Program-made: the position numbers and the translations under genes
Notes under the pieces: model-generated
Seen by the model: the letters and a program-made list of their open reading frames with translations, nothing else
What the model was told of the DNA's origin: nothing
Database searches by the model: none
DNA from: Mucidula mucida
Lineage: Eukaryota; Basidiomycota; Agaricomycetes; Agaricales; Physalacriaceae
Reading direction: 5' to 3'
Assembly (NCBI GenBank): GCA_015501055.1
Contig: JADNYV010000089.1
Coordinates: 1 to 64,000, forward strand
Length of the DNA stretch: 64,000 bases
Part shown: positions 2,163 through 56,993 of the stretch, piece after piece
Layout of the letters: each line of letters begins with the position of its first letter
How positions within the stretch are numbered: position 1 is the first letter of the stretch

Positions 2163-2437
2163 CTCATCCTCTTAAATACTTTTGACTACTGTTACACCCA
2201 ATCCTTTTTCTGGATGTTCTTAGACTTCATGTAATTGAACCGACCTGGACGCGTTAATGCTGGACGCGCCTTGGACCAGTGGCGCGCGACAAGACTTCTC
2301 TCTTCATTCGCAGTCTGAGCTTACTACTATGACGCGGTCCTCCACGAAATGGAATCCGTCAACTTCAAGTTCGCGCACGCCACCCTTGAGAAAGGCTTTC
2401 CATCCACCTTCTCCTTGCATTCCAAACCCTCGTTCAA

Positions 2438-5400
2438 TTATAGAATATCAGTAACACCACGCCTCGACGAAATCACACCGACAACTTTACTCTCAAACTC
2501 CAACAACGTTCCACCCCTCGTCGCCACCATATCGTACTCCTGCACATCCAGCCCCAACAAAGAAGCGACATTAACGGAAGCGAGCGCCAACGTATCCGCG
2601 CCCGACAGTTCCCCGTCCATCTCCAACGCAGCCTAATGAACATTAGTTTCCACCAACGATACCTCGGAGAGGGAGCTTACCCAGGAAGCATCAAATCGGG
2701 CGTTTCGTGCAAAGCTTTGCGAAGGACCTCGAGGGAGGGGGATCGATCCCAATCGCGACCGACACGTTATGCTTGAGCAGAACACCGAGTGTCGTGTCTT
2801 CTGTAAGTGGAGGTCCTGCAAGTCTAAATGAGGAACGCAGATGTGAGCCTACAGTAGGTACGGGAGCGAGCAACCACACTTACATGCGTCGAGCTTGCCA
2901 ATCCGTCGGGAAGGGGCGCGAGTTGCCTAGGATCACGCCGACGCCAGCAACAGCAATTTCCGCAGCAATTAGGTGACTTTCAGCTGCCCCGACAAAAGTC
3001 ATCTTGATGGTATTTCCAGTACGCGCCTCTATCTCGGCTTTGAGAGCAAGCATTGACGCCATGATATCCGCGTTGTGCACGTATATCGCCAATGGCAATT
3101 GACCCTATGGAATATTGAATATCTGGGGTAAAAAGTAAAAACCCAGCCACTGACCTCCACGATACGCTTGGACTGTTCCCCGATATTGCCGTGTGACGCG
3201 CCAGACAAAAGTCGCCTCAGCGTCCCTATCATAGTACTGATACTATGGGAAGCCGACATCGACAACGTCACATGCAAACCCGATACATCCTTGATCACCG
3301 CGCCACGCTCCAGCTTATGTTTCGCGCCCGTTGAGAACGCTGTAGCTAGGCCAGAGAAGAACCCATGCATCTCCGAAGAGATTTGCGGGGAGACCACTGC
3401 AGACGTGACACCGGATCGATAGGCCAACCTTTAGAGTGTGAGTACAGTGACATTTCGAAATTGAGAAGAGCGGACGTACAGCATATCGCGGGATTGAAAT
3501 TTGAGTCCATCAACAGCACGTATGACCGTTTCTTCACCGACGATTGACGGCACTTCTCCAGCCAAAAGGTCGAAACCAACGCCATCCGTCGTACTGGCTT
3601 CAAATTGAAGATCGTTGAGACCAATATCCGTCCCGACACTGACAAGACCCGGACTGCCAAAGAGTATTAGCTATGGCCCCCTCACCAAAAAAACCACTGA
3701 CGCAATCGAGCCACCCTCTAAATCAATCCTCGTTGCACCCGCAAATGCCTTTGTCTCTAAGCAGATGTACTGCGGCCCATAACACACCGTCCTCCCATTC
3801 TCGACACGTACCACACCATGATCAAGACCATCTCGTGCAAGATACGCCTCTACCACTTTTCCCGCACGCTGCACATATACGCTTTTTACGTTCTCGAACA
3901 CCACCGCTCCCGAGATGGTGGCTTTGGGGTCCAGCGGCTGTGTACCGTCGTACTCGATCGCCTCTTGTGCTTCCGTATCAAAACTGGGTGTGAGCGGGAC
4001 CTTCTGAGAAGAAAAGGGTTTTGTTTTCAGGTGAGGTTTCTCCAGTTGAGGGATGCCATCGATAAACACTTGCTTCGGGGCTGCTCCAAGGGCTAGTGGA
4101 TGACTATCCCAGACGACGACGTCTAGGCAGTGGGATTAGACTCATATTACAGGGGAAAACCTGTTGATCTTACCAGCATCGTGTCCTATGAAGTCGATTA
4201 GACTTCATGTATGTATCATTAGCATTTTCCTAACCTTTCACAAGAGAGCCAACCCGATGAGCCATTCCCATTATCCTCGCCGGCGTCGTTATCACGCTAG
4301 AAAGAGCGATATGTGCAGGAAGACCGTAGTAATGTGCTTGCTGCGCCTCATGTAGAAGGTATCTTGAGTTGACCAGGGGGTGATCGGTCTGTCGTTTAAT
4401 ACCTTAGAAAGAGTAGGCATTCTAAAGCGAATTGAAGCATACCTTCATGACGACGTCAATGCCTGCATCTGCTAGTATACGAGGTGCATACTCAGAGTGG
4501 CGATAGCTCTCCCGCTTGTATCGACCGATTATAGCGAATATGGCTGAGGCGGGGGTGGTTCCTAAAGCAATTCAGTGATACGCCTGACGATAGAACAAAG
4601 ATACACACCATACGCGTTCTTGAGCGCTTCAGGAATGAGATAACTTTCATGAGCGTGATGGAAAGCGGCGATGGAAAACTTGAATTCATTTGTTAGCTGT
4701 AAGACACATTAGAGGCATAGAAGACAACGTTAAGAGTATGGCGTACGCGAACCATGCCATCGATATCGACTGCCTCGTAACAGTGATTGTGTACCTGTGG
4801 TAATATTAGCTCACGCTCTGGACATATAAACCAAGGCTACCTTTACGCGTCCGCGAAGTACGTCGACCAATGCCTCCCACGCGAGGTCGTCAGGGAATTC
4901 ACCGAGACCTATCCACTGGCCAGCTAGCGCTTTGTCACAATATACATCTTGTTTCTCTTTGAGAATCCGAGCAGTGTTATACCTGGAGGGAGGTTAGTCA
5001 AAATAGGGTGATATACAATAGGACCATACGCCGTTCGGAAGTCCCATACGGTGTCCATGCGAGTGCCGCCATACACCCTAGCTGGTCAAGAGACTCAGAA
5101 GTTGTTGTGCAAGAAAACATCCTACGAACCAGGATTTTCACCACAAGCGTGCCTACACACGGTTAGTTGTATGTAGCGATGATAACGGAAACACGCACTT
5201 CATCTGCCGCCATCTAGGAGGGTCATATTCAGAGCCATTCAAATGGAACGGCGGTTCGAGGAGCATTGAAGATGATGACTTTTCTGCTGTGGGTCGAGGT
5301 TTAATGACGAAAGCTTGTCCGCCTTGTATTGCAGTCAGGTACGAAAGACGAGCAAGGTCAAAGAGAGGCATACCGATAGCATTGGCGGATCCGGGCAGTA

Positions 5401-6019
5401 CAAGGGCGGTGGTAAGCCCGCCAGCGATAGCAAGACGATAAGATTCATCGTGAGTGTTGAGTGCGTCCAGACTACGCAACCATGGCTGAACGCTGCCCTT
5501 GAGAGAGTTTCCGTCTATCGCGCCCGTAAGGCCTGGTGAAGCTCCGACTCCCATGTGAGAGTGCAGGTCGACAATGCTGCTGTTGGCTTAGGAAGGTAGA
5601 TGGAAATGGTACGAAAAGACACACCCAGGTGATACCCAGGCTCCTTCAACATCTACAACGTCCAGCTCATCGCCATATGCCCCAGCGTCTACGATTCCAA
5701 TAGACTTGATGATTCCTCCGTCGATTAAAAGGTCACCATGGACAACTTCCAATCCTGCATCCCGCCCAGTCCACAATGTCGCGTTTTTGAACAGCGTGGG
5801 GCGCGTCCCCGGCACGAATCTATCAGACTGCTCTCTGGCGCTGAATCCAGGAGGTGGGGAGGGTATCGAGTGCAATTTCTGGCACTTGGATATGGTTTCC
5901 TCGGCATGTAAAGGTAGTAGTGGTACGGCTGGGTCGTCCTGAGAAATGCGGTAAAATGTCAACATAGACAGACAGCCGCAGAGCAATAGCAGCGCTGTAC
6001 ATCGCCGAAGACGGTCCAT
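2438..6019 (-). CDS. Two-domain amidohydrolase-like protein (left copy)
   Basis: About 14 exons encode roughly 950 residues; the start is the ATG followed by 'MDRLRRCTALLLLCGC', a signal peptide or signal anchor. An N-terminal beta segment ('NATLWTGRDAG', 'GDLLIDGGIIKS') precedes the metal-binding 'DLHSHMG'. Later come 'KHACGENP', 'VHNHCYEAVDIDG', 'FHHAHESYLIPEAL', 'SDHPLV' and 'VVVWDSHPLALGA', all amidohydrolase landmarks. A second, more divergent amidohydrolase-like half follows ('SGVTSAVVSPQ', 'YVHNADIMAS'), ending 'SRRGVTDIL'. Fungal relatives are often annotated as carbohydrate esterase family 9; the true substrate is unknown. Exons checked are open with GT...AG borders, so this copy may be functional. 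It is divergent from the F-box/LRR gene, sharing about 330 bp upstream. Confidence 0.75.
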
Positions 6020-6136
6020 GGTTGTTGTCTCCAGTCAACCGATAGCGGTGCCTGTTCGCGCCATCGCACGGTCATATGCAGGGTGCCACCACCGATAAGA
6101 GATAGGCAGGCGGCTGATTTACCTCGCCGTTGCCGT

Positions 6137-6167
6137 TGTCGTCGTCGTCGGCGGCGGCGGCGGCGGG
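6137..6167. repeat. GTC/GGC trinucleotide run
   Basis: A run of GTC units followed by GGC units lies in the shared upstream region of the amidohydrolase and F-box genes. The matching place in the right arm (about 24046-24075) is clearly shorter, so the run has changed length since duplication. Confidence 0.85.
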
Positions 6168-6351
6168 GACGCGGGGACGCTGCAGTGCTCATGGAGGTAA
6201 GAGGCAAGCCCAAAGCTGCCATTCGAACGGAGGGCCGGGCCGACGTTCCGCATCTTGAGCCGCCACTTCCTTCGCGCACTTGCGTCTCATCTATAGAACG
6301 TGAGTTCAATACGCGTCTTTAATTTGAAGCCTTTGTTATCTTTCTCCCTAG

Positions 6352-7608
6352 GACGTTGACTTCTTGTTACACGTATGGCGCGACATCGCACTGTCATTGC
6401 CACAGCTGTGGACGTACGTCCGGTTTGATTTTGCAGAGTATAGCAAGTATTCCATTCGCCAGACTGTGTACAGGACAACACTGTTCCTTGAACGGTCTAA
6501 AGGCTATCCCTTATCCCTTGCTATCACCAACTGGAACGCACACACTCTCATAGCCATTCCAGCATTTGCAGCTCTAGAAGTCTCGATACCGCGTTGGAAG
6601 TTCCTTTCAATCGCACTACGCACACTGTCAGCCTTCTCCCACGGAAATATATTCTCCAGCCTCGAACACCTCGTAATTTATTCCACTCGAACAACTTCAA
6701 ACGTCAATTTGGATTTATTCGAGGCCAAAAAGGTGCCTTCCCTTCGCGTGCTCGAGACACGGAGCAGTATTCCATGGCGCGTGTTCCATCAGGTCTCCCT
6801 TCCATGGTCTCAACTGACCACTTTCCGTGATTTCTCCGCATTCGACCAAGACGGGCTCGACTTCCTCCAGCAGTCCACAAACCTGACGGACCTCGGCGTT
6901 ACCTTGGGGGAGGCCTGTAGGTCATTCGGTGGCGCTGTCGTCCGCCTCCCGAATGTTTTTCGATTCGAGATTACGGAAGATGCAGGTGCTGCACCTAGGT
7001 CCTTGGAGGAGGTCTTCAAAACTCTTGAATTACCGTCCCTATCCGAGCTTTCTCTTTCTTTCTCTTTCAAAGACGGAGTAAACTTCTTCCCCGATTTATT
7101 CGTGGGTGGGTGCAAAAGATTGGTCAAATTACATATCAATTTGGGCCTGGCGCTAAATGCAGACAATTCTTCCAATCTGCTTCGATTTCTGTCGTGCACT
7201 CCGTGCGTCCAGGACCTCTGTCTTGATGACAGGTTGTCTGTCGAGTTCATTGTGGGACTGACACTCACTCCCGTCTCCAAAAGGCTGCCACACCTTCACA
7301 TACTTGACTTTGGTGCCTGCTATCGGACTGTCGACCTAATCGATGACACTCCTGTGATTTACGACATGATAGAATCCAGATACTTGCAGCTTGAGGAGGG
7401 CGTCAAAGCAGAGGACACACAATTTGGCAGTATGGTGGACGTGACGATGAGCTCGAGCTCCTCAATATCGCGCGTGGAACGCCCTAGCTCATGCATGGAG
7501 CGAGTACGTGTTCCCCGATGGTTGTTCTTCAAAGAGGATCAACGATGGAAGGACATCTGTGGCGCAATCAAGGTAGAATGCGGTATCGTCATGAAGGATG
7601 CCAAGTAA
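6352..7608 (+). CDS. F-box/LRR-type protein lacking a visible F-box (left copy)
   Basis: A single long exon begins after a clear acceptor (CCCTAG at 6346-6351) and continues to the stop at 7608, about 418 residues. It opens with 'HVWRDIALSLPQLWTYVRF', the segment that follows the F-box in agaricomycete F-box proteins. LRR-like strands follow ('VPSLRVLE', 'VSLPWSQLTTF', 'STNLTDLGVTL', 'LPSLSELSLSF', 'LPHLHILDFG'). The tail has a Ser run and 'VRVPRWLFFKED'. No in-frame ATG or F-box exon could be found upstream, where the amidohydrolase promoter lies, so the first exon is unresolved or missing. The frame is open, unlike its right-arm copy. If expressed it would resemble the substrate-recognition part of an SCF ubiquitin ligase; without an F-box this is doubtful. 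Confidence 0.6.
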   Translation, partial: DVDFLLHVWRDIALSLPQLWTYVRFDFAEYSKYSIRQTVYRTTLFLERSKGYPLSLAITNWNAHTLIAIPAFAALEVSIPRWKFLSIALRTLSAFSHGNIFSSLEHLVIYSTRTTSNVNLDLFEAKKVPSLRVLETRSSIPWRVFHQVSLPWSQLTTFRDFSAFDQDGLDFLQQSTNLTDLGVTLGEACRSFGGAVVRLPNVFRFEITEDAGAAPRSLEEVFKTLELPSLSELSLSFSFKDGVNFFPDLFVGGCKRLVKLHINLGLALNADNSSNLLRFLSCTPCVQDLCLDDRLSVEFIVGLTLTPVSKRLPHLHILDFGACYRTVDLIDDTPVIYDMIESRYLQLEEGVKAEDTQFGSMVDVTMSSSSSISRVERPSSCMERVRVPRWLFFKEDQRWKDICGAIKVECGIVMKDAK

Positions 7609-7810
7609 ATTGCCTCGTGGATGAGTGAATCGAGGTAGTTAATCCTGGACCATGAACAGACATTTGTTACCATACAATTCTCTCCATTCATTCTTACATG
7701 TCCGTATACTACATGAAGGACACTACAGTGTTCAAGACTTTGATCACTCGATACTAAACAGTTACTCGTGTCATCGATACATGTTTCGGCAACGCTCGTT
7801 CGTACCATTC

Positions 7811-9770
7811 TTACTCATTAGCGACGACAATTACGCTTTTCCCCAAATTCTCGCCCATCTGGATCTTCCTAATTGCCTCACCGGCACCTTCCAGCCCTTT
7901 GGTGATCTCCTCCTTGTACTTGATCTCGCCGCTCGCCAACTTCTGCGGGACAACACGGTAAAACTCGTCAGTCCACTTTGGTGCGAGGAACCATTCGAGG
8001 AAGCCGTTGATGGAAAGGCTGCGAGCGAAGATTTGCCAGAGGTTCTAAGGCGGGAATCAGTCAAAATAAGATGGTTGAAGGTGTAAGACAGACCTTGTAC
8101 GTCTGGCCTTTCGCATCGTTGTAGGACGAAATCATGCCACAGACGATGATGCGACCAAAGTCCTTCATCGACTCGATCGCGGCATCGAGGGTAGAGCCGC
8201 CGACATTGTCCCAGTACCTGATCATAGCGATTAGATTTACGGAAGGCGCGAGCAGTAATAGCGACATACACATCCAGAGGGCCCTCTTTCTTCAACACCT
8301 CCAACGTATCCGTGGTCTTATAGTTGAACGCGACGTCCGCTCCGATTTCTTTCATGAACTGGACCTTTGCGTCCGAGCCTGCAGAGCCGATGACCTTCAA
8401 GCCATCAAGTTTGGCTAATTGTATGACCATTCTAGATGAAGCGCGTCAAGACCTTGATGAGTGGGAAAGTAAAGAACAACGAACGAGCCAACGGCACCAG
8501 CCCCAGTACTGACGAAGATAGTGTCTCCTTTCTTCGCTTTGGCGAATTCCTTGTACGCGAAATACGCAGTACGTCCAGGCATACCCGCCGCGCCGACGTA
8601 GACCGACCAAGGAAGCGAGGGTTCGGTTTTCGTTAGGACTTGCACTTTCGAAAAGTCGTTGATGACGAAGTATTCTTGAAACTCTGGGAGAGATAAATCA
8701 GAAGAAGATTGCGCTAGCTTAACGGGCGTACTAATCATGCCGGTAACATGGTCACCGACTTTGATGTTCGGGTTTTCAGAGCGCAGGACCCGCGCTACTC
8801 CGTAGTTGTATGACTTGTCAATATGTTACGAGGCGTCGCTTGCTAGGCTGATGAACGTACGGTTGTCCAAGTAGAAACGCGAGCTATCATGGTGGGTGAG
8901 AATGGCATGAAATTGAATGATTGAGAAACAAACGTACAGAGTAAGATTCTATACTCGCGTCACGCATCTTTCCTTGCATGTAAGGATCGACGGAAACGAC
9001 AAGTGTCTTGACCAAAATACCACCGTTGAGTGGTACGTTCTCGAGGTCGATAGTCTGGCTCGCGTCCTAGACTTAGGGATGTGCGCCGTACCGTATGTAC
9101 GGTGCATACGGTACGGCATACGGGTTACGGTACCCGTACCGTGAGCAATCTTGGAGTACGGTCAACGGATCGGTCATACGGCCGTGATACGGTCACTCAC
9201 CTGGTGGGCTCAGATCGTCTTCAAATCACTATCCATCCAGTAGCAGACCCCTCATGTAGAGTACCAAGGACAAACACAATCTGATGCTGGCTGAAATGTG
9301 TCGTGGATGTTGCTTGAAGACCTTGCCAGCAATGGCTTGTCCCAATCGGGACACCTACCACGTGGACCATCTTGTTGATGAACAACGACGTTCTCGGTGC
9401 ATTTGGCCTCCCGGACCACCCATTTACTGTCCGGAAAACATCAAAGGACATGAATCAACTTTTCTGGTGCAGTGTTTGAGCATTGAAGTTGCCTGAATGA
9501 CTGTCTTTCAGTGGTAATGGCTGAAGTAGGCTCCTTTCGGGCCCAAAGGTGACTTGTCAACTTATCCACACATCGAGAAAAACTAACTACATACTGACAG
9601 GTCAATAACTCTCAATATTTATAACTGAACGCCACACTACGGCCGTGTTCCGGCCATTACGGACCATATCTTACGGCCGTAAACCGAATACGGGTGGGCA
9701 ACTTACGGCCGTACCCGTAACGGTATGGCGCACATCCCTACCTAGACTGTTGTCTGACCGGGGACCAGAA
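7811..9770 (-). pseudogene. MDR-family reductase, disrupted left copy
   Basis: This is the counterpart of the open gene at 21075-22466. The downstream exons are well preserved: 'EFQEYFVINDFSK', the nucleotide-binding '[11 protein letters not shown]', '[16 protein letters not shown]', the 'YWDNVGG' region, and an end reading 'VANE' before TAA at 7811-7813. Two lesions hit the 5' end. A 667-bp hAT-like element (9074-9740) interrupts exon 2 after the segment encoding 'FLVPGQTT'. Upstream of exon 2 the first intron is only partly kept, and exon 1 with the promoter is gone compared with the right arm. The gene can hardly make full-length enzyme. Confidence 0.8.
9074..9740. mobile_element. Non-autonomous hAT-like element, 667 bp, with perfect 8-bp TSD
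   Basis: Terminal inverted repeats read TAGGGATGTGCGCC at 9074 and its exact reverse complement ending at 9740. The 8-bp duplication CCTAGACT is at 9066-9073 and 9741-9748. Both ends are dense in TACGG/CCGTA motifs, the subterminal repeat style of hAT elements (Ac starts TAGGGATG). The interior shows no transposase, only short open frames. The perfect target duplication suggests a fairly recent insertion; it sits in exon 2 of the left-arm reductase and is absent from the right arm. Confidence 0.9.
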
Positions 9771-10159
9771 AGCCTGTCCAATTCATGTCAGTTTGGCAGC
9801 ATTCTCGTTAAAGGAATCTGATGACCGATACACACAAATGACTCTGAGTGAGCGGTGAATAAGGACTTGAACAATTTGGACAATCAATAATGCACTGTTG
9901 CCACTCCGAAGCGACTTCAGCTTAAATGAAAGTACGCAAAGCATTGAATACGGAGTGCACAGCCATGACTACACGCTTGAAGCTTTCCTTGAAAGCATCC
10001 AAGTCTGTCGCCGCGTAAGTACTGTTGTCAAATCAGACGAGCATGTATCAGCATAAACCGTTGGAGACCTAAAAAGCCTAACAGATAGACACTGCAACGA
10101 TGCCCGTGGAACGTCCACATTCAGATATCTTCACTGAGGGATACTGACTCGATGATTTG

Positions 10160-10480
10160 CGATGCTGCCAAGATATACTTTCTTGGGGAGGGAGACCCGC
10201 TCTGTACGCTCCGTGATGTGTCCTAAATGCTTGTCACAATCAAGTAAAAGATGCATCCAGAGCTGCGGCATATTGAGCCCAAGCTCTCTTCACTTACGGC
10301 AAAATTCCAAAAGAAGAGCCAAGGTCCTCCTTGTGGGTTGTGCACAGCGGGGACCCCAAATCCATAAACCGTTGGGATACATTGTTGAACTGTCGGTGTG
10401 AGCGGTTCACTGGGAATCAAACACATAGTAGGATGGAGAATTAACTGCGCGGCCTCGAGGTGCACTTCTTATAAACCCTT
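10160..10480 (-). pseudogene. F-box family relic
   Basis: The minus strand keeps the signature 'NPQGGPWL' plus an upstream 'ILHP...IPSEPLT' segment corresponding to the F-box core of the relic at 16936-17651. Frame changes follow at once. It lies divergently upstream of the gene at 10651 and matches 15600-15850 in reverse. Confidence 0.6.
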
Positions 10481-10650
10481 CTTTATGTTGGTTACCACTG
10501 GCATATAAACCTCATCATGATGATATCTGAATGGAGTATCACTAGACTCAGCACTGCTGCCAAAGTAAAATGTTTGTAAAGTAAACTGACCCCCGCAATA
10601 GGTATTTAAAAGAAAGTCTCACCCTTCATCATCTCATACGTTCTCCCACC

Positions 10651-11372
10651 ATGTCCGCCACAAACACCTTGTATGGCCGTACCTGCGGGCAATGCATTGC
10701 CGGCTGGCTCTCGCCTCGCATGATAGACCTCCTTTGTAGTAAGTGCTTGTTCCTTCCATATCTCTTTGCCTCTCATGCCCTCTCTCTCCAGCTGAAGCCG
10801 CGGTATTCACCACCCTGATGCCCAAGAAGCACCGCAGATTTGAATGTAGCCCCAACCAGACCCTCACTCCTTATAATGCCATTGTCTTGCTCAACGCGGA
10901 GTACATCCTGCCCCCTCTCTACAGCAAAGGTCTCCAGCGCTCCTTCTATCATGGCTACATCACCGTGTTCCAGGCCGCCTTCAATCTACTCAGTAGCACC
11001 CCGACGTCCATGTTCACGACGGCGACGGTGCGTGCCCATGCACAGACTGTGTACGCCCAGCAGACAACGGATTACTTCAACAACGGAGGGCAGGTAGCGT
11101 TTGTCCTGGATGTATCACAAGAGAGGCGGAGGGGGGATCCTTGCCGCAAAGAAGACAGTGCATTGCCGCACTGCAGGAATGATACACAGTCCAAGTTTGT
11201 AAGGAGAATGATGGGCCTTGATTCTGACAAGTGTTGGGGAATGTATGGAGAAAAGTTTGTTGTTGACGAGGAACATAAGGAATTTGGGAATGATTGTTTC
11301 TTTGAGGAACATGAGGAGGATGGTCTGGATTTGTTTTATCTCTTGAAGCAGAGGCTGGCACAGTGCGGGTGA
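10651..11372 (+). CDS. Unrecognised protein, two exons
   Basis: Exon 1 (10651-10738) starts ATG and encodes 'MSATNTLYGRTCGQC'. A 53-bp intron (GTAAGT to CTCCAG, 10739-10791) joins in frame to exon 2, giving 'LLCTEAAVFTTLMPKKH' and about 220 residues in all. The first 145 residues look like a real protein ('LNAEYILPPLYSKGLQ', 'FYHGYITVFQAAFN'); the acidic C-terminus after about 11100 lies in CpG-poor sequence and may be altered. I do not recognise the family. The upstream sequence ATTTAAAAG near 10604 could be a TATA element. A decayed inverted copy of the promoter, exon 1 and the intron start is at 15315-15420. Confidence 0.5.
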
Positions 11373-11790
11373 TACCTAATGCACCTTTCTTGTACCTGTT
11401 TGTGCTAGTTAGCATCCATTGTAAATCTTCTAATGTGTAGAAATTACGGTGTACGCAGCTTGTACAATAGAAAAGTTACATTTCACTTGTGCGCGTAGAC
11501 AGTAGAGTTCCTCTTGATGGCCGCCTTAACTGCACTTGCCACCAGTTTGCGACAATAAAGTACATATTGTGCTGATGTGCTTGCCCAGTGATTGAAGAAT
11601 TAGAATCACAAAGGAACATGTCACATTTTATAAATTCTGTCATAAAACATGGCTAGGCAACATTGACAACTTCTCCTCGTACAAGTATCTGAAAGTTGGT
11701 CACATATGGCAAATCATAATAATAACTTTGCTCATATTTTAACAAACACGGACAAATTGTGGTGTCTTCAGCCTCTAGCGGAGAGAGCTG
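11373..11790. other. No supported gene
   Basis: AT-rich, CpG-poor sequence between the gene at 10651 and the third reductase relic. Only short open frames without motifs were seen. Confidence 0.5.
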
Positions 11791-11794
11791 TACT

Positions 11795-12310
11795 CAAGAT
11801 GTTTTCCACGGAAAGGACAAGTATCTTGACGAAAATACCACCATTGTACAATATGTTCTCAAGGTTGATAGTCTGGCTCGCATTATAGAATGCTGTCTGA
11901 CCACGGACTGGAAAGTCTGTCAAGACTCAAAGTTGTGTTAGTTCAGCCTTTTGAATTTGGACGAAAGGGACATACCAGTGGGGATCTTGTTTAAATGACA
12001 GATGAGTTCTGTACGGGCGTCATCAGGAAGTAGGGTTATGTCTTTCAGAAAGCATAACTGTGCCGGCTTTATAGTAGCAGCTGCAAGAGCATCTAGGTAA
12101 GAGACATCTCTGATCAAAATTGCTGGGGACTGTTATAGTGACATTTTTGTAACAAGAACTAAACATAGAACTTAATGACTGATACACATAGATGGCTTAT
12201 TCTGTCAATAAGATTTTGGGCCTTGAATAATGTGCTGTTGCACTCACCTTTATCCCAAAGAGACTTCATCTTAAATGACAGTACATGAAGCATTGAGTAC
12301 AGAGTGTGCA
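11795..12310 (-). pseudogene. MDR reductase relic: promoter, exon 1 and exon 2
   Basis: The minus strand aligns by eye with the promoter and first two exons of the gene at 21075. Exon 1 reads ATGACGCCCGTACAGAACTC and hits a TAA within 12 codons. Intron 1 and the exon 2 start (ACTTTCCAGTCCGTGGTCAG) follow. Differences from the intact gene are mostly CG-to-TG or CA changes. Upstream, the TATA-containing GCAGCTGCTACTATAAAG matches the right-arm promoter, and 12230-12320 matches the far-upstream part shared with 9880-9990. Confidence 0.75.
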
Positions 12311-12359
12311 GCTATAACTGCACACTGTCCCTGAGAGGATGTCTGTTTGTTGCGTGCGT

Positions 12360-12500
12360 AGGTTAGGCCTGGTGTAAACTTGATCCCAATGTGAGAACAC
12401 AGGTTGACAAAGCTGCTCTAAAGTCAGACAAGAAAGTATGACCTTGACATAAAAAGATGCACCTAATGATACCCTTCCGCCTTACAACTGCTCCGATGAA
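12360..12500 (-). pseudogene. Amidohydrolase relic (exon 1/2 junction)
   Basis: The plus-strand text GGCCTGGTGTAAACTTGATC through AAAGATGCACCTAATGATACCC tracks 5528-5650 of the left amidohydrolase, covering the 'HSHMGVGASPGLTGA' region and the first intron. It is interrupted and CpG-depleted. Confidence 0.6.
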
Positions 12501-13247: not shown

Positions 13248-13252
13248 CAGAT

Positions 13253-14255: not shown

Positions 14256-14326
14256 AGCTGGTTGACGCAGATAAAAACGGGCAGCTTAAAAGCGGTAGCA
14301 GCACCATTGAGGTGGTCAACCAATAT

Positions 14327-15313: not shown

Positions 15314-15314
15314 C

Positions 15315-15850: not shown

Positions 15851-15859
15851 GGAGATACC

Positions 15860-16930: not shown

Positions 16931-16935
16931 CAGAC

Positions 16936-17651
16936 ATGGCGGATATAGCGACTATTGACCGCTACCCTAACTGCACCTTTCTTCTGCTCCAGCCCAAGGA
17001 CACTGTCAAGCCCTGCACAGCACGTGTTAACCAGCTTCTTGGGCAAAACAATCCCCCACTTAACATTGAACTCTCTGTATTCCGCAAGATTGCAGAGGAC
17101 ACGCGCACTGCGCTTGAAGATCTGAACTTGGAGAATGTTTTGGACTTGGAAACTGCTAGAAAACCTCCTTTCTGAACAGAAACAAGCACAGTCATGTCTC
17201 AAAGACACAAAGTCAATCCTTTATCTTATGTGTTCCATTTCTAGTGAACTGCTTACAGAGATACTTCAACATTGTATTCTTGACCATCTACCAAATTGCA
17301 GACCCCAATGTGCTCAACCCACAAGGAGGATCTTGGCTTTTATCTGGAGTCTGCCGTTGTTGGAGGGAGCTCGCGGTTAATACACCACAGCTCTGGACAC
17401 ATCTTCTACTTAATATTGACAAGCATGTTGGACATATCACGGATTGTCAGTGTGCAGATAAAGTGGGGCTCTTCATCACACGATCTAGAAGTCTACCCAT
17501 GGAAGTTCATTTTGGCAGCCTAATCAATGTAGCAGGTCATCCAGTAATACCAGCCCTTGAAGTTGGCATTCCTTTATGGAGATCCCTGGATGTTAACCTT
17601 CCACAGGCATTATTGCAGTGCCTATCTGGCAACAATTCTCTAAGCCTGTAA
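16936..17651 (+). pseudogene. F-box protein relic with frameshifts
   Basis: ATG at 16936 starts 'MADIATIDRYPNCT'. A coiled-coil-like stretch follows ('VFRKIAEDTRTALEDL'), then the frame shifts ('LLENLLSEQKQAQ', 'SSELLTEILQHCI') and shifts again ('VLNPQGGSWLLSGVCRCW', 'LAVNTPQLWTHLL'). This order (coiled coil, F-box with 'LLTEILQHC', then 'W...PQLW') is the standard agaricomycete F-box architecture. LRR-like text ('LPMEVHFG', 'ALEVGIPLW') ends at a stop at 17651. At least two frameshifts make it a probable pseudogene; introns could explain at most one of them. Confidence 0.65.
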
Positions 17652-18767
17652 AGGCTTCGGCTGGGGCTGCAAAGTGACACACCAAACTTACAGGTTAATG
17701 TCTTTCAGGCAATGCAAACATTTAGATAATAGTATCAAGTGCTGTACAGCCGTGTTCTGCTTCATTTATGGAAATCCCTTCGTCTTTGGAATACTTAAGG
17801 AAGTGTATCTCCCGTTTTTGTTTACCTTTATGAGATCTTAGTACATGCAAGGTTGTTGTTGTTCCTCTGCATAACACCCCTCGTATTAGGATGTTGTCCT
17901 GGTGGTCTCATAAAAACAAGCCTTGATTGGCTGCCTATTCTACGTTTTAGCTCCTGATGTCTTCGGAAGTATATCATTTCCCCATCAAGACCATGATTCC
18001 TCAGCGCTCAGCATGGGATGCAGTATAATATTTTGTGTGGTAACGCCGCTGGAGAGTGTTTTTGGGACAACTTATAGACTAACCTTTTTGGTTGAACTTT
18101 GAGTAGATGCATGCAAAGGTTGATTTGATGTCTAGGTGATTGAGCTTCTGAATCACAAGCCATAATGCCAGGAACTATGGTGCTCCAGTCAAAGAGTCTA
18201 TGTGCAGCGCGCACCGGCCCTGTAGGCAAGGCCATGTCTTGTAATTGCTGTATGTACTTATCTCTAAATAGGAAAGAGCACACTGTCCACGGTGAGGTTG
18301 GATGAGGGAGAGTGGCTGTGCTGTGTAAGTGTTTCTTTGGTGCCTTGAGTGTCACTGATATCCTTGTCAGCCCTGGACTTGCAAATGTTGGGAGTGGTCT
18401 CTGCGGCAAATTCAGTTCAAAACCAACCAAAACCTTTTGTAGTGCCGTTTTGGCTAAAAAAAATTCCTCTTTTGAAACCTGTTGCACGTTTGATTTTACG
18501 CAAACATTAATGACATAAAGATTGATGTGTTGCCTTTGCAGTGGTAATGTCGCCAGTCTTGTTGAAATAGTCACTTTGGAGTTGGCTTCGGGCCTCGGTG
18601 TTCTTGATGGCGGCAAAGATGAAGCATAAGTTAGCACAAAGGGTGTTTATCAACTCAAAGGATGTACAGGCGATTGAACATCTAATGTGAATGGTAATCT
18701 GTTATAATGTCAGTACCATGGTTGGGATGCTGAGACAGACGAGTCACTGATAATATCTGGGGGCAAA
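17652..18767. other. No supported gene
   Basis: Contains a 209-codon open frame on the minus strand (18008-18637) with no recognisable motif and an unconvincing composition. CpG is scarce, which lengthens chance open frames. Probably decayed duplicated sequence. Confidence 0.4.
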
Positions 18768-18990
18768 TCAAGAATGGCACATAGCTGAGGGATGACATAT
18801 TGCCCATTTTGTAGGGCTGCTTACCATGTATGGCATACGTGCTGGAATATCTTCACAGCCAGGATTGCTTTCAACGTTGGGACAAGGAAAGTACTGGACC
18901 TTAAAATGGATTAGAAGCGTGAGACACTGTAAGGTCACATGAATGGAGTCTGATCTGTTAGGGGCAAACACGCTTGCTCTTAATCTATCA
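18768..18990 (-). pseudogene. Possible F-box/LRR tail relic
   Basis: The minus strand encodes 'SIHVTLQCLTLLIHF' and 'YFPCPNVES', which resemble LRR-like strands of the local F-box family. It is short and without context; a weak call. Confidence 0.25.
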
Positions 18991-19264
18991 GAACTTAACC
19001 TGTACTTTCCACTACATGTCTAAAACAGCTTGCCTATGTGATCTGACAACTGAGCCGGGGTGCAATCTAGCATCTTTTCTTAAGAATGAACTGGTAAGTC
19101 AGTACACGTCTAACTCTTAGGTTTTGAGATCCATATATTTCTAGGTGCTTGACGGACTTGAATATCATATGGGGATGTCAAGGGGAGGTATCAATGATTG
19201 CTCATCTATGACAACTACAGAGTGTATGGCCGTCTCTTAGCTTCACAACTGCAGTTTCATTTTT

Positions 19265-20194
19265 TCTAGTCCATTCCAATATGATAGAACTCTTCAAGTC
19301 TGGTTCTTGGGGACTTCTTCCGCCCTGGGATGTTCTGCAGAAGATCTACAAGCTCTACAACCACAACCAGAAACTTTCAACACCAACATCTGCAGGGATG
19401 TTGTTTACTGTGGTACATTTAAAACTGAATTAGACATTGGCTTGCTAACACATATTTTAGGTGTTGCCGGAAAAAGAGTACGAGTATGAACTCTTGCCTG
19501 TCTGTACGGCCAATAACTTGCCTATCTACATTGGCGAGGAGCGCCATAACCATCCATACACAAACCTTCCTCGCGTCAAGTCTACAATCCACCCTTGCTT
19601 TGTCATTGAGTCCGCCTTCAACTATACACTTGGAGACCTTGATTATGCTCCCAACTCTCTCACTGACGACGAGTCGCTCGTCGGGCTGATATCATCGGCA
19701 TCATAAGTTCCCTTCGTGTTAACCTATTGTGGTTACATGGGACTTGGGATGACTTCAAGGATCGCCCCGTCCCGGTCGCGCGCCCGGATCCAAGACCCAA
19801 ACGCAAGCTTCCTCCTGTAGAGGTAGAGGACGCCGATAGCGAGGGTTATGCAAGTGACCAGCCACACAATCTCAATGACCCTCGTATTCTAAAGAGGCGA
19901 AAAGGATTACAGGCGTATATAGCGAAGCATAATCGGCGTTATGAGGACGAAGAAAATGACGAGGAGGAGGAACAGGGCGACGACAACAACGATGAGGATG
20001 GCGGCAAGAGCAATGATGAGGACGAGGGCGATGGCAGTCATCCTCGACATATCACCTCAGATATTGGGAGGCAAACACGCTCTGACTCTGGATCCCAAGA
20101 ACTTATCGATTGCACTGATGTGCGGGTGCCGAACGTCCGGCGGTCAAAGAGATTGCAGTCGTCGGATGCCTCTGTACAGTCTGTTGTCGGTTAG
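19265..20194 (+). pseudogene. Uncharacterised family shared with 29310-30442 and 45452-46537
   Basis: 'MIELFKSGSWGLLPP' at 19281 parallels 'MIDLLKEGQWALVP' of the gene at 29310-30442. Then come 'EYEYELLPVCT', 'LPRVKSTIHPCFVI' and 'LWLHGTWDDF', a long acidic Glu/Asp/Asn-rich segment and a basic end 'RRSKRLQ', suggesting a nuclear protein. The frame breaks near 19700: the 'LVGLISS' and 'SSLRVNLLW' parts are one base out of register, with no obvious splice pair. The 5' exons are not recognisable in the CpG-poor DNA upstream, while the 3' half is CpG-rich. Probably a broken gene. Confidence 0.5.
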
Positions 20195-20879
20195 AAGAAG
20201 GGAACAAGGTCTGCAACCTTGAGTTCAACGCCGGATTGCTTGGGTGTAACACCGCTAAAGTGACACCCTCCGACCATAGGAATGGCTTTGAAGAAGTATC
20301 CAGCTCGTAGTGCTCACGCGGTGGAAGAGTCTGTGGCGGATCGTTGCGGACCCGTAAGGTCATTTCCCGGTATAATAGTGTTACTTCTATACATTCACGG
20401 TTATTTAGTAGCGAAATCAAAATACTATCACTGTTATACACGACAGTAAACATGGTTTGACAATTGGCACCGACTAGCTCATTGTGAGCAGAGAGGAACG
20501 CTCACGTGCTCCTGGAAAAAATGACCAATTATGGCGAACACGGCTCTTGAAGAGTACCAACTTGTCCAGAACATCTCGGACAGCACCGGTATCTGCACCA
20601 GGGCGAACGGACACATTGAAGCCTCATGATACACAAAACGACTTCTATGACTGGCTGTGCCTGGGAGCATGGCAGCCTTTCAACTATTCGAGCTACCTCC
20701 CCTCGTTGACGAAGCTCGGGAACGCAGGCCCATACATTACGATCTGCAGTCTGTAATCGCCATGAAGCAAAAGTAATCGCTTGGTCATTCTGTTCGTCGG
20801 ACGACATGCCGGCTACTGTAACCTAGTATAAAATCGCTTCGGGACAAAGTGAGCGCAACGGCACGTTATTCATCGCCCA
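20195..20879. other. No supported gene
   Basis: Frames of 60-110 codons exist on both strands without motifs. A short plus-strand frame at 20530 starting ATGGCGAACACGGC was noted but ends after about 32 codons. The segment 20800-20870 recurs at 39610-39690 and belongs to the far-upstream region of the reductase. Confidence 0.4.
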
Positions 20880-21010
20880 AGTCCTTATTCACCGCTCACT
20901 CAGCGTGAGAATAAGCCATTCGTCATCAACTTATTTTCTTCGGTACTCGTGTTGGAAAAACGTCACCGCAACAGTCACCAGCGATGTTGATCGGATGTTC
21001 TTGCGGCTGC

Positions 21011-21027
21011 TATTATAAAGTATAAAG
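21011..21027 (+). promoter_or_regulatory. TATA-like element of the reductase gene
   Basis: TATTATAAAGTATAAAG lies about 50 bases before the ATG at 21075. The same GCTGCTAYTATAAAG context is kept in the decayed copy near 12085 on the minus strand, which supports a regulatory role. Confidence 0.5.
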
Positions 21028-21074
21028 ACAGAACGGTGGAGCTCTCTGGGAAGACATAACTCTAGTGCATCATC

Positions 21075-22466
<1,392 letters not shown>

Positions 22467-22661
22467 GAATGGTACGAGTCATACGAGCGTTGCCGAAACA
22501 TGTATCGATGACACGAATAACTGTTTAGTATTGAGTGATCAAAGTCTTGAACAATGTAGTGTCCTTCATGTAGTATACCGACAAGTAAGACTGAATAATG
22601 AGGATGGGATGTAAACAAACATCATTCCCCGGTTCCTCAATGCACTCGTCCACGAGCCGTT

Positions 22662-23866
22662 TTACTCGGCATCCTGCATGACGATACCACATTGTACCTT
22701 GATTGCGCCACAAATGTTATTCCATCGTTGATCCTCTTCGAAGAACAACCATCTGGGAACACGTACTCGCTCCAAGCATGAACTAGGGCGTTCCACGCGC
22801 GATATCGAGGAGCTTGAGCTCATTGTCACGTCCACCATGCTGCCGAATTGCGTGTCCTCTGGGTTGTCGCCCTCCTCGAGCTGCAAGTATCTGGATTCTA
22901 TCATGTCGTAAATCACAGGAGTGTCATCGATTAGGTCGACAGTCCGATAGCAGGCACCAAAGTCAAGTATGCGAAGGTGTGGCAGCCTTTTGGAGACGGG
23001 AGTGAGTGTCAGTCCCACAATGAACTCGACAGACAACATGTCATCAAGACATAGGTCCTGAACGCACGGGGTGCACGATAGAAATTGAAGCAGATTGGAA
23101 GAATTGTCTGCGTGTCGCCCTAGGCCCAAAATAATATGTAATTTGACCAATCTTCTGCACCCACCCACAAATGAGTCGGTATGAAAGCCGAAGCTCGGAC
23201 AGGGATGGTAATTTAAGAACTTTGAAGACCTCTTCCAAGGACCTAGGTGCAGCACCTGAATCTTCCCTAATCTCGAATCAAAAAACATTCGGGAGGCGGA
23301 CGACAGCGCCACCGAATGACCTACAGGCCTCCCTCAAGGTGACGTCGAGGTCCGTTAGGTTTGTGGACTGCTGGAGGAAGTCGAGCCCGTCTTGGTCGAA
23401 TACGGTCAACTGGGACCATGGAAAGGAGAGATGCTGGAGCTGACGCCATGATATATTGCTCCGTGCCTCGAGCACGCGAAGGGAAGGCACTTTCATGGCC
23501 TCGAATATATCCAAATTGGCGTTTAAATTTGGCTGGGCGGAGAAAATAATGAGTTGTTTGAGGCTGGAGAATATGTTTCCTTGGGAGAAGGCTGACAATG
23601 GGTAGTGCGATGGAAAGGACCTTCCAACGCGGTATCGAGACTTCTAGAGTTGCAAATGCCGGAATGGCTGTGAGGTCTGCGTTAGAGCTGGTGATATATA
23701 CGCATAAGGGATAGCCTTTAGAGCGTTCAATGAAGAGTGTTGTCCTGTACACTGTCTGGCCAATTGGATATTTGCTACACTCCGAAAAAGTAAACAGAAT
23801 GTAGGTCCAGAGCTGTGGCAATGACAGTGCGATGTCGCGCCATACGTGTAACAAGAAGTCAACGTC
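22662..23866 (-). pseudogene. F-box/LRR-type protein, broken right copy
   Basis: It matches 6352-7608 almost throughout but has three lesions. Near 23601 two bases are missing relative to the left copy, shifting the frame after 'LSIAL'. At 23278-23280 CGA (Arg) has become TGA after 'RLPNVF', a CpG transition. Near 23165 a deletion of about 25 bases removes the stretch between 'LSELRLSY' and 'FVGGCRRL'. The remaining C-terminal part ('LSCTPCVQDLCLDD', 'LPHLRILDFG', 'VRVPRWLFFEED') is well conserved. Confidence 0.8.
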
Positions 23867-24183
23867 CTAGGGAGAAAGATAACAAAGGCTTCAAATTAAA
23901 GACGCGTATTGAACTCACGTTCTATAGATGAGACGCAAGTGCGCGAAGGAAGTGGCGGCTCAAGATGCGGAACGTCGGCCCGGCCCTCCGTTCGAATGGC
24001 AGCTTTGGGCTTGCCTCTTACCTCCATGAGCACTGCAGCGTCCCCGCGTCCCCGCCGACGACGACAACGGCAACGGCGAGGTAAATTAGCCACCTGCCTA
24101 TCTCTTATCGGTGGTGGCACCCTGCATATGACCATGCGATGGCGCGAACAGGCACCGCTATCGGTTGACTGTAGACAACAACC

Positions 24184-27100
24184 ATGGACCGTCTTCGGCG
24201 ATGTACAGCTCTGCTATTGCTCTGCGGCTGTCTGTCTATCTCGACGCTTTACCGCGTTTCTCAGGACGACACCGCCGTACCACTACCTATACATGCCGAG
24301 GAAACGATATTCAAGTGCCGAACATTACATTCAGTGCCCTCCCCACCGCCTGGATTCAGCGACAGAGAGCAGTCTGATAGATTCGTGCCGGGGACGCGCC
24401 CTACCCTGTTAAAAAATGCGACATTGTGGACTGGGCGAGATGCAGGATTGGAAGTTGTCCAAGGTGACCTATTAATCGACGGAGGAATCATCAAGGCCGT
24501 CGGAAGCGTCGACGCTGGGGCATATGGCGACGAGCTGAACGTCGTTGACGTAGAAGGAGCCTGGGTATCACCTGGGTGTGTCTTTTCGTACCATTTCCAT
24601 CTACCTTCCTAAGCCAACAGCAGCATTGTCGACCTGCACTCTCACATGGGAGTCGGAGCTTCACCAGGCCTTACGGGCGCGATAGACGTAAATTCTCTCA
24701 AGGCCAGCGTTCAGCCATGGTTGCGTAGTCTAGACGCACTTAACACTCACGATGAATCTTATCGGCTTGCTATCGCTGGCGGGCTTACGACCGCCCTTGT
24801 GCTGCCTGGCTCAGCGAATGCTATCGGTATGCCTCTTTTCGGTCTTGTTCGTCTTATATACCTGACGGCAACACAAGGCGGACAGGCTTTCGTCATTAAA
24901 CCTCGACCCACAGCAGAAAAGTCATCATCTTCAATGCTCCTTGAGCCGCCGTTCCATTTGAATGGCTCCGAATATGATCCTCCTAGATGGCGGCAGATGA
25001 AGTGCGCGTTTCCGTTATTATCGCTATATACAACTAACCGGGCGTAGGCACGCTTGTGGTGAAAATCCTGGTTCGTAGGATGTTTTCTTGCACAACAACT
25101 TCTGAGTCTCTTGTCCAGCTAGGGTGTATGGTGGCACGCGTATGGACACCGTATGGGACTTCCGAACGGCGTATGGTCCTATTGTACATCACCCTATTTT
25201 GACTAACCTCCCTCCAGGTATAACACTGCTCGGATTCTCAAAGAGAAACAAGATGTATATTGTGACAAAGCGTTAGCTGGCCAATGGACAGGTCTCGGTG
25301 AATTCCCTGACGACCTTGCGTGGGAGGCATTGGTCGATGTACTTCGCGGACGTGTCAAGGTAGCCTTGGTTTATATGTTCAGAGCGTGAGTTAGAATTTA
25401 CCATAGGTACACAATCACTGTTATGAGGCAGTCGATATCGATGGCATGGTTCGCGTACGCCATATTTTCAACTTTGTCTTCGATGCCTCTAATATATCTT
25501 ACAGCTAACAAACGAATTCAAGTTTTCCATCGCCGCTTTCCATCACGCCCATGAAAGTTATCTTATTCCTGAAGCGCTCAAAAAGGCGTATGGTATGTGG
25601 CTTTATTCTATCTCCAGGCTTATCAACAGGTTGCTCTCTAGGAACTACCCCCGCCTCAGCCATATTCGCCATTATCGGTCGATACAAGCGGGAGAGCTAT
25701 CGCCACTCTGAGTATGCACCTCGTATACTAGCAGATGCAGGCATTGACGTCGTCATGAAGGTATGCTTCAATTCGCCCTAGAACACCTACGCTTTCTAAG
25801 GTATTAAACGACAGACCGATCACCCACTTGTCAACTCAAGATACCTTCTACATGAGGCGCAGCAAGCGCATTACTACGGTCTTCCTGCACATATAGCTCT
25901 GTCCAGCGTGATAACCACGCCGGCGAGGATTATGGGAATGGCTCATCGGATTGGCTCTCTCGTGAAAGGTAAGAAGAGTGCTGATGATACGTACATGACG
26001 CCTGACTCAACTTTGTAGGACATGATGCTGGTCAGATCGAAAGACCTTCCTGTGAGATGAATTTGATCTCTCTTACTAGACATCGTCGTGTGGGATAGTC
26101 ATCCTCTTGCCCTTGGCGCAGCCCCGAAGCAAGTTTACATCGATGGCATCCCGCAACTCGAGAGACCTTACCTTATAACCAAACCCTCATCCTCGCTGAA
26201 GGTCCCGCACACACCCGACTTTGATATGGAAGCAAGAGACGCGGTAGAATATGACGGCACACAGGCGCTGGAGCCCAAAGCTACGATCTCGGGAGCGGTA
26301 GTGTTCGAGAACGTAACAAGCGTATACATACAGCGTGAGGCAGAAGTGGTAGAGGCGTATCTTGCACAGGATGGTCTTGGGAATGGTGTGATACTTGTCG
26401 AGAATGGGAGGATGGTATGTTATGGTTCACAGTATGCGTGTCTGGAGACGAAGGCGTTTGCGGGGGCAACTAGGATCGATTTAGAGGGTGGTTCGGTTGC
26501 GTGAGTGTTCAATCTATCAGGCGGGCTTAGCTGATAGTTTCTGGTAGTCCGGGTCTCGTCAGTGTCGGGACGGACATTGGTCTCAACGATGTTCAATTTG
26601 AAGCCAGTACGACGGATGGCGTTGGTTTTGATCTTTTGTCTGGAGAAATACCGTCAATCGTCGGCGAAGAAACGGTCATACGTGCTGTTGATGGACTCAA
26701 ATTTCAATCACGCGATATGCTGTACATCCGCTCTTCTCATTTTCGAAATGTCACTGTACTCACACTCTAAAGGTTGGCCTATCGATCCGGTGTTACGTCT
26801 GCAGTGGTCTCCCCACAGATCTCCTCCGAGACGCATGGTTTCTTCTCTGGACTAGCTACGGCGTTCTCAACGGGCGCGAAACATAAGCTGGAGTGTGGCG
26901 CAGTGATCAAGAACGTATCGGGTTTGCATGTGACGTTGTCCATGTCGGCCTCCCATAGTATCAGTACTATGATAGGGACACTGAGGCGACTTTTGTCTGG
27001 CGCGTCACACGGCGATATCGGGGAACAGTTCAAGCGTATCGTGGAGGTCAGTGGCTGGGTTTCTACTTTTTACTCCAGATATTCAATATCTCATAGGGTG

Positions 27101-27758
27101 AAATGCCGTTGGTGTTATACGTGCACAACGCGGATATCATGGCGTCAATGCTTGCTCTGAAAGCCGAGATTGAGGCGCGTACTGGAACTACCATCAAGAT
27201 GACTTTTGTCGGGGCAGCTGAAAGTCACCTAATTGCTGCGGAAATTGCTGTTGCTGGCGTCGGCGTGATCGTAGGCAACTCGCGCCCCTTCCCGACGGAT
27301 TGGCAAACGCGACGCATGTAAGTGTGGTTGCTCGCTCTCGTACTATAGGCTAACATCTGCGTTCTTTGTTTAGACTTGCAGGACCTCCCTTCACCGAAGA
27401 CACGACACTCGGTGTTCTGCTCAAGCATAACGTCTCGGTCGCGATTGGGATCGATCCCCTCCCTCGAGGTCCTTTGCAGAGCTTTGCACGAAACGCCCGA
27501 TTCGATGCTGCCTGGGTAAGCTCCCTCTCCGAGGTATCGTTCGTGGGAACTAATGTTTATTAGGCTGCGTTGGAGATGGATGGGGAACTGTCGAGTGCGG
27601 ATACGTTGGCGCTCGCTTCTGTTAATGTCGCTTCTTTGTTGGGGTTGGATGTGGAGGAGTACGATTTGGTGGCGACGAGGGGTGGAACGTTGTTGGAGTT
27701 TGAGAGTAAAGTTGTCGGTGTGATTTCGTCCAGGCGTGGTGTTACTGATATTTTATGA
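24184..27758 (+). CDS. Two-domain amidohydrolase-like protein (right copy)
   Basis: Paralogue of 2438-6019 with the same exon layout. Exon 1 (24184-24575) encodes 'MDRLRRCTALLLLCGC' and ends 'WVSPG'; the first intron 24576-24623 joins in frame to 'IVDLHSHMGVGASPG'. Next are 'GLTTALVLPGSANAI', 'KHACGENP', 'VYGGTRMDT', 'VHNHCYEAVDIDGMVR', 'FHHAHESYLIPEALK', 'DAGIDVVMKTDHPLVNS', 'ITTPARIMGMAH' and 'DIVVWDSHPLALGA'. The C-terminal half has 'SGVTSAVVSPQISSE', 'LYVHNADIMASMLALK' and 'PFTEDTTLGVLL', ending at TGA 27756-27758. The N-terminal hydrophobic segment suggests secretion or membrane anchoring. All junctions checked are GT...AG and in frame. Family relatives act on amide or ester bonds of sugar or cyclic substrates; no specific reaction can be assigned. 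Confidence 0.8.
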
Positions 27759-27849
27759 TTGACTGTGGTTTTGGAATGCACGAAGCTCATTGAATGATGT
27801 TGTTTCAGATGATCATTTTCCTGTTAAGCGAGAGTTCATGCTCATAGGT

Positions 27850-56990: not shown

Positions 56991-56993
56991 TAG

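What the first reader, a model, noticed from the sequence alone, without database searches (positions are those of the whole stretch)
2405..27785. Large inverted duplication with reciprocal gene loss between the arms
A three-gene block is present twice in opposite orientation. The left arm keeps an open F-box/LRR frame but a dead reductase (exon 1 lost, hAT-like insertion); the right arm keeps the reductase but a dead F-box/LRR copy with three lesions. Both amidohydrolases appear open. Each broken gene still has one open copy, as expected if decay proceeded under selection to keep one of each.
Basis: partly seen in the sequence, partly recalled or inferred. Interest (0 to 1): 0.8.

Follow-up and report, generated by a model that had tools for sequence, protein, structure and literature searches.

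The report
Inverted duplicate arms trading gene damage
In a wood-decay mushroom a three-gene block is duplicated back to back, and the two copies appear to keep overwriting one another, so gene damage moves between them; the tidy 'each arm keeps what the other lost' pattern seen in one version of the region is different, and partly mirrored, in the other version.

Summary
The inverted duplication is real: window 2411-9869 (minus) against 20878-27785, 90.1% over 6,673 aligned bases. The genome is Mucidula mucida. A second contig, C154, probably the other nuclear haplotype, carries the same inverted duplication, giving four arms. The reductase is intact in window-right and C154-left, dead in the other two. 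The F-box/LRR gene is full length only in C154-right: both window arms lack the same 406 coding bases holding the start codon and F-box, so the left frame called open has no F-box. The left amidohydrolase has a 1-base frameshift; the other three are open. So 'each broken gene still has one open copy' fails for the window but holds in C154, where the intact reductase is on the opposite arm. Of 364 informative sites, 255 group arms by position, 71 across and 38 by haplotype, in 27 runs against 169 expected: inter-arm conversion or crossover. A second inverted repeat in the same contigs gives 189 of 190 sites by position. Known kind of process, instructive instance.

The parts
2411..9869 (-). Left arm of the inverted duplication (WL); includes the 667-bp insertion
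20878..27785 (+). Right arm (WR)
2438..6019 (-). Left amidohydrolase (CE9 / imidazolonepropionase-like): splice sites kept, but a 1-nt insertion in exon 16 (2741, in a C run) shifts the frame
   Evidence: the low end of the frame is read from the tblastn match
6352..7608 (+). Left F-box/LRR remnant: 418-aa open frame lacking about the first 135 codons (start and F-box region); deletion junction at 6376/6377
7811..9073 (-). Left reductase remnant: later exons open, 5' part interrupted by the insertion, exon 1 lost beyond it
9074..9740 (+). Non-autonomous hAT-like element, 21-nt TIRs, 8-bp target duplication on both sides; absent from the other three arms
9870..20877 (.). Spacer, about 11 kb (about 3.5 kb in C154); of the part tested, 12400-19500, the listed matches elsewhere are three dispersed repeats (40 of 167 candidates scored)
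19519..20880 (-). Spacer flank shared with C154 25653-24276 in opposite orientation and beside the opposite arm, about 89% identical (my sum of the rows)
21075..22466 (+). Right reductase (MDR family, ADH_N_2 + ADH_zinc_N), intact. The model gives 360 aa; comparison with relatives suggests a further in-frame 48-nt intron 21544-21591 (read by eye), hence about 344 aa
22662..23842 (-). Right F-box/LRR pseudogene: same N-terminal deletion as the left copy, plus a 2-nt deletion (shared with C154-left), a premature TGA and a 29-nt deletion
24184..27758 (+). Right amidohydrolase, intact, 17 exons, 928 aa as modelled (927 if intron 1 ends 3 nt later, as the public models suggest)
45367..53176 (.). 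Second inverted repeat (arms 45367-48274 and 49377-53176, about 90%), used as an internal control: no mosaic

Best explanation
An old inverted duplication of a three-gene block (MDR reductase, F-box/LRR gene, CE9-type amidohydrolase) in the mushroom Mucidula mucida exists in both nuclear haplotypes of the sequenced strain. Since duplicating, its two arms have repeatedly exchanged sequence by ectopic gene conversion and/or crossover, so each arm is a mosaic and lesions have been copied from arm to arm. In the window haplotype this spread a deletion of the F-box gene's front end to both arms; in the other haplotype the same stretch was homogenised the other way, leaving the front end in both arms. 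The apparent reciprocal loss is a snapshot of this process plus ordinary decay and one hAT-like insertion. Shown: four arms, their lesions, the mosaic, the control repeat. Inferred: that C154 is the allelic haplotype; that recombination rather than assembly made the mosaic; the direction of each transfer.
For: C154 is colinear with C926 from the window's first base (C154 14500) to C926 68109 (C154 64630), about 95-98% in the blocks outside the inner arms, apart from large indels; both arms lie in each contig. Four-arm site patterns: 364 two-against-two sites (255 by position, 71 across, 38 by haplotype) in 27 runs against a permutation mean of 169, minimum 145 of 2000. The 33-site by-haplotype tract (left 6462-6110) sits on the deletion: identity window-left/window-right 95.3%, C154-left/C154-right 98.8%, across haplotypes 83.5-87.5%; a 245-base perfect window-left/window-right match spans the junction, and an 837-base perfect match joins the two C154 arms. 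At one edge of that tract no pair of arms is identical over more than 86 bases, arm-crossing pairs over no more than 46. The control repeat 45367-53176 in the same contigs, arms also about 90%, gives 189 of 190 sites by position, 1 by haplotype, 0 across. The genome search found four close amidohydrolase copies (91-100%; every other match covers at most 384 bases) and F-box relatives outside the four loci of at most 56% identity (80 of 461 candidates scored). The deleted front end is ancestral: Hymenopellis radicata proteins have it.
Against: No reads were available. I checked 9 of the 26 run boundaries; at the other eight the longest identical stretch between some pair of arms is 146-837 bases, long enough for a mis-join in a short-read assembly. 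The paper for this genome lists both Illumina and PacBio, and the passages seen do not say which was used here. Allelism is inferred: on the right C154 ends 4.1 kb inside a dispersed repeat, so that end proves little; stretches on both sides have a third similar contig (C144 on the right; C374 and C236 matching C154 1-9251); of eight conserved genes looked at, seven occur once and one twice; 59.9 Mb is near the 53.13 Mb reported for a relative (listing), so only part of the genome would be held twice. The spacers of the two haplotypes share only one longer segment.
Confidence: 0.72

Rival explanations
1. One reading: independent decay of redundant copies under selection to keep one working copy of each gene (reciprocal loss).
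For: In C154 every gene has at least one intact copy, on different arms for reductase and F-box. Reductase and amidohydrolase are constrained: dN/dS 0.07 between the intact reductases, 0.13-0.20 among the six amidohydrolase pairs.
Against: In the window haplotype no complete F-box copy remains; the same deletion is in both arms. The six F-box pairs show weaker constraint, dN/dS 0.41-0.50 over codons 136-538. Two dead copies fall on opposite arms half the time by chance. In the other haplotype the intact reductase is on the other arm.
Confidence: 0.12
2. Assembly artefact: the mosaic and the spacer arrangement come from mis-joins between near-identical arms and haplotypes.
For: At eight of the nine run boundaries checked some pair of arms is identical over 146-837 bases. 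A 1-nt difference in a C run is the kind of error long-read assemblies leave (that statement from general knowledge).
Against: The second inverted repeat in the same contigs shows no mosaic (189 of 190 sites); one boundary has no identity above 86 bases; no N in the 299,972 bases of fetched loci.
Confidence: 0.12
3. Crossover between the inverted arms inverted the middle of the region in one haplotype, which by itself put the working reductase on the other arm (a special case of the best explanation, not exclusive of it).
For: Window-right and C154-left share the intact reductase, the F-box 2-nt lesion and a spacer flank in opposite orientation; 71 sites group across, including a 10-site tract that is the innermost run longer than two sites.
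Against: The shared spacer flank is only about 89% identical, at the level of arms rather than alleles; window-left does not carry the deletions of the C154-right reductase; by-position tracts lie between the across tracts. An older, longer arm trimmed differently in each haplotype would also fit.
Confidence: 0.35
4. C154 is not the allele but a second genomic locus (segmental duplication) in a single haplotype.
For: Of eight conserved genes looked at, seven occur once. Stretches on both sides of the overlap have a third similar contig: C144, and C374 and C236. On the right the overlap ends in a dispersed repeat.
Against: The overlap starts exactly at the first base of C926; window 55000-63000 has exactly two close full-length matches, itself and C154 at 97%; other retained pairs exist: C549/C572 at 99.5% over 4,410 bases, and seven MCM loci, two with nearly equal scores, where from general knowledge six genes are expected; the public protein clusters of the amidohydrolase and reductase count one contig only, of 144,329 bases.
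Confidence: 0.15

Closest known systems
Human Y-chromosome palindrome P6 (Hallast et al. 2013, PMC3723533; abstract and passages seen)
   Same: Inverted repeat arms exchanging sequence by gene conversion, with occasional crossover that inverts the middle.
   Different: The human palindromes' arms exceed 99.9% identity on a haploid chromosome; here arms are about 90%, homogenised only in patches, and two haplotypes are compared.
Duplicate genes evolving under gene conversion in general (Genes 2011, PMC3924837; search listing and start of abstract only)
   Same: Exchange of fragments between duplicates that keeps them alike.
   Different: Here a loss-of-function deletion is what both copies of one haplotype share.
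Reciprocal gene loss between duplicates (concept recalled)
   Same: Different genes broken in different copies.
   Different: Arms are not independent: lesions are shared across arms and the pattern differs between haplotypes.
hAT-type non-autonomous elements (MITEs); family features recalled
   Same: Short TIRs beginning TAGGG, 8-bp target duplication, dozens of near-identical copies.
   Different: No transposase was sought; superfamily inferred from TIR and target duplication only.

Membership tests
Reciprocal loss after duplication | Each gene keeps at least one intact copy within the haplotype | tested here: not met
   Window haplotype: both F-box copies lack the front end. Met in C154.
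Reciprocal loss after duplication | Lesions arose independently in each copy | tested here: not met
   Front-end deletion shared by both window arms; 2-nt deletion shared by window-right and C154-left. Other lesions are private to one arm.
Inverted repeat under ectopic gene conversion | Tracts in which paralogous arms are more alike than alleles | tested here: met
   38 by-haplotype and 71 across sites, mostly in long runs; 33-site tract at the deletion.
Inverted repeat under ectopic gene conversion | Not explained by assembly of repeats | tested here: inconclusive
   Control repeat clean, but eight of nine boundaries checked have identical stretches of 146 bases or more; reads not available.
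Inversion by crossover between inverted repeats | Spacer in opposite orientation in the other haplotype | tested here: inconclusive
   Only one 1.36-kb flank is clearly shared, opposite in orientation, about 89%.
hAT-like MITE | TIRs and 8-bp target duplication, multicopy | tested here: met
hAT-like MITE | Mobilised by a hAT transposase | not tested
   No transposase search was made.
F-box protein | F-box domain in the intact copy | tested here: inconclusive
   PF12937 at residues 89-152, E 0.0064, 16.7 bits, below the curated 24.3; relatives P0002 and P0003 pass it.
Amidohydrolase (CE9-like) | Amidohydrolase domains | tested here: met
   PF07969 and PF01979 above cut-off; many relatives named carbohydrate esterase family 9 by their sources.
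MDR reductase | ADH_N_2 and ADH_zinc_N domains | tested here: met
   PF16884 and PF00107 above cut-off.

The most novel reading that the evidence does not exclude
The locus is a recurrent flip-and-copy switch: crossovers between the arms invert the middle and conversions copy patches, so haplotypes of one species differ in which arm holds which working gene, and the F-box gene has been driven to opposite fates in the two haplotypes (front end erased from both arms in one, kept or re-copied in both arms of the other).
Probability: 0.3. Interest if true: 0.6.

Novelty: new member of a known kind. Interest (0 to 1): 0.42.

Why it matters
It suggests, with an internal control in the same contigs, that a reciprocal-loss pattern between duplicate arms can be produced and rearranged by arm-to-arm exchange, so such a pattern in one haploid sequence should not be read as selection to keep one of each without the other haplotype. 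It marks a small, PCR-testable locus in a mushroom for measuring conversion and inversion between inverted repeats of about 90% identity, and it shows public gene models that hide broken genes.

Tried and rejected
Rejected: that 11805-12283 (68-76% like the reductase 5' end) is the continuation of the left arm; the arm ends at 9869, where 23 bases match 20878-20900 perfectly, and 11805-12283 is a more distant fragment. Rejected: that the insertion is 2.7 kb; the element is 9074-9740. Left open: whether the spacer is inverted. Led nowhere: expression evidence (no RNA data), genome relatives (none held for this genome), papers on such a locus in Agaricomycetes: the lists show none on this locus, but they are capped (for example 12 of 183, 12 of 1,488) and only listings were seen. 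Dropped rows: BLAST pieces under 60, 100, 200 or 300 bases; columns before 3200, columns with a gap and columns with more than two states were left out, and 514 singleton sites were counted but not used. The dN/dS used the 360-codon reductase model, which probably includes 16 intron codons, and reads dead copies in the intact frame. On rechecking, the right end of the C926/C154 overlap proved to be a dispersed repeat; for that I lowered the best explanation from 0.74 to 0.72 and raised the second-locus rival from 0.12 to 0.15.
Full report
The thing. The window is bases 1-64000 of a 144,329-base contig (C926) of a 59.9-Mb genome. A protein search puts a gene of the window on a 144,329-base contig of Mucidula mucida, a mushroom of the Physalacriaceae; the paper of a M. 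mucida (Oudemansiella mucida) genome describes it as a white-rot wood decayer (PMC8480192, passages). The inverted duplication is there: 2416-9073 against 27780-21198 at 90.1% over 6,673 aligned bases, with a 23-base perfect match that carries the arms to 9869 and 20878.

The second haplotype. Searching the genome with part of the right arm found a second contig, C154 (68,767 bases), with both arms. C154 is colinear with C926 from the first base of C926 (C154 14500) to C926 68109 (C154 64630), apart from large insertions, at about 95-98% in the blocks outside the inner arms. The last 4.1 kb of C154 is a dispersed repeat found at some thirty places, so the right end of the overlap proves little. 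For allelism: the overlap starts exactly at a contig end; window 55000-63000 has exactly two close full-length matches; C549 and C572 are 99.5% alike over 4,410 bases; seven MCM loci where six are expected from general knowledge, two with nearly equal scores; the public protein clusters of amidohydrolase and reductase count one contig only. Against: of eight conserved genes looked at seven occur once, so most of the genome is held once; stretches right and left of the overlap have a third similar contig (C144; C374 and C236). A dikaryotic strain filed as Hymenopellis radicata was reported at 4.23% heterozygosity (PMC9961838, passages), close to the difference seen here.

Genes in four arms. 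Call WL and WR the window's left and right arms, CL and CR those of C154. Reductase: WR and CL open with all splice sites; WL has lost exon 1 and carries an insertion; CR has several deletions and 9 stops in the intact frame. Amidohydrolase: WR, CL and CR open with 16 introns; WL has one extra base in a C run. F-box/LRR: CR is a single open frame of 538 codons (C154 29206-30822); CL has the same front end but a 2-nt and a 1-nt deletion; WL and WR both lack 406 coding bases from the start onward; WR has in addition the 2-nt deletion seen in CL, a TGA and a 29-nt deletion. The lost part holds the F-box region (PF12937 at residues 89-152, below cut-off in this protein, above it in relatives), and Hymenopellis radicata relatives have it, so the window has a deletion rather than C154 an insertion. 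No other close copy was found in the genome: four for the amidohydrolase (91-100%), and F-box relatives outside these four loci are at most 56% identical (80 of 461 candidates scored).

The insertion in WL is 667 bases (9074-9740), with 21-nt terminal inverted repeats starting TAGGG and an 8-base perfect target duplication; 33 other places match at least 624 bases at 92-98% (40 of 82 candidates scored).

Mosaic. In a four-way alignment I classed each gap-free site that splits the arms two against two. Of 364 sites, 255 group WL with CL and WR with CR (by position), 71 group WL with CR and WR with CL (across) and 38 group by haplotype. They fall in 27 runs; shuffling gives 169 on average and never under 145 in 2000. 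A 144-site by-position run covers left 4377-3221. The first half of the amidohydrolase is across (28 and 17 sites, with one by-position site between). The F-box front and the promoter region it shares with the amidohydrolase are by haplotype (33 sites), just where the window arms share the deletion. There the two window arms are 95.3% alike and the two C154 arms 98.8%, while comparisons across haplotypes are 83.5-87.5%.

Control. The window holds a second inverted repeat, 45367-48274 and 49377-53176, also about 90% between arms and 96-98% between haplotypes. There 189 of 190 informative sites are by position, one by haplotype, none across. So such mosaics are not a general product of this assembly or of the alignment. 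I checked nine of the 26 run boundaries for identical stretches. At one edge of the by-haplotype tract no pair of arms is identical over more than 86 bases (arm-crossing pairs no more than 46); at the other eight some pair is identical over 146 to 837 bases, where a short-read mis-join is possible.

What it means. The simplest account is an old inverted duplication whose arms exchange patches by gene conversion, with ordinary decay and one transposon insertion on top. A deletion of the F-box gene's front end ended up in both arms of one haplotype, and the complete front end in both arms of the other. This is not what independent decay under selection to keep one of each predicts. Selection on the reductase and amidohydrolase is likely (dN/dS 0.07 between the intact reductases and 0.13-0.20 among amidohydrolase pairs), but 'reciprocal' by itself carries little weight: two single losses lie on opposite arms half the time.

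Inversion. WR and CL share the intact reductase, the F-box 2-nt lesion and a 1.36-kb spacer flank that lies in opposite orientation beside opposite arms. A crossover between the arms would do this, but the flank is only about 89% alike and WL does not share the CR reductase deletions, so I leave it at 0.35.

Known kind. Conversion with rare inversion between palindrome arms is well described, for example human P6 (PMC3723533, abstract and passages). I found no paper on this locus in the capped lists.

Noticed in passing
window 45367-48274 and 49377-53176: A second inverted repeat, arms about 90% alike, present in both contigs and grouping by position at 189 of 190 sites. Each arm holds a similar open frame of about 300 aa, not identified.
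   Followed up: partly
window 34440-44180: About 9.7 kb present in C926 and absent from C154 at the matching place; it contains a broken F-box/LRR relative at 36205-37041.
   Followed up: no
window 35320-35574 and 50917-51171: A 250-base repeat in opposite orientation, 97% alike, also on C154 and C494 at 98-99%; both window copies lie in stretches absent from the matching place of C154.
   Followed up: no
window 598-792: A hairpin with 87-base arms (95% complementary) and a 21-base loop, also in C154.
   Followed up: no
C154:29206-30822 (minus): A complete 538-aa F-box/LRR frame; in the protein search the only close M. mucida hit is the truncated window-left model at 79% (7,991 candidates scored).
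   Followed up: partly
window 2438-9454: Public gene models of the left arm seem to hide its damage: P0133 takes its first residues from inside the hAT-like insertion, P0012 reads past the frameshift, P0001 starts in another frame without the F-box.
   Followed up: partly
Hymenopellis radicata proteins P0135 and P0002: A reductase relative (80%) and an F-box relative (35%) lie on contigs of the same length, 68,957 bases, so the reductase/F-box linkage may be old; the amidohydrolase relative is on a 56,418-base contig.
   Followed up: no
C926 64001-70230, C144 6175-12348, C154 60526-64630: Three copies at about 97-98%, and related copies along C926 86-134 kb and on C839, C956 and C570: a multi-copy region right of the window.
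   Followed up: no
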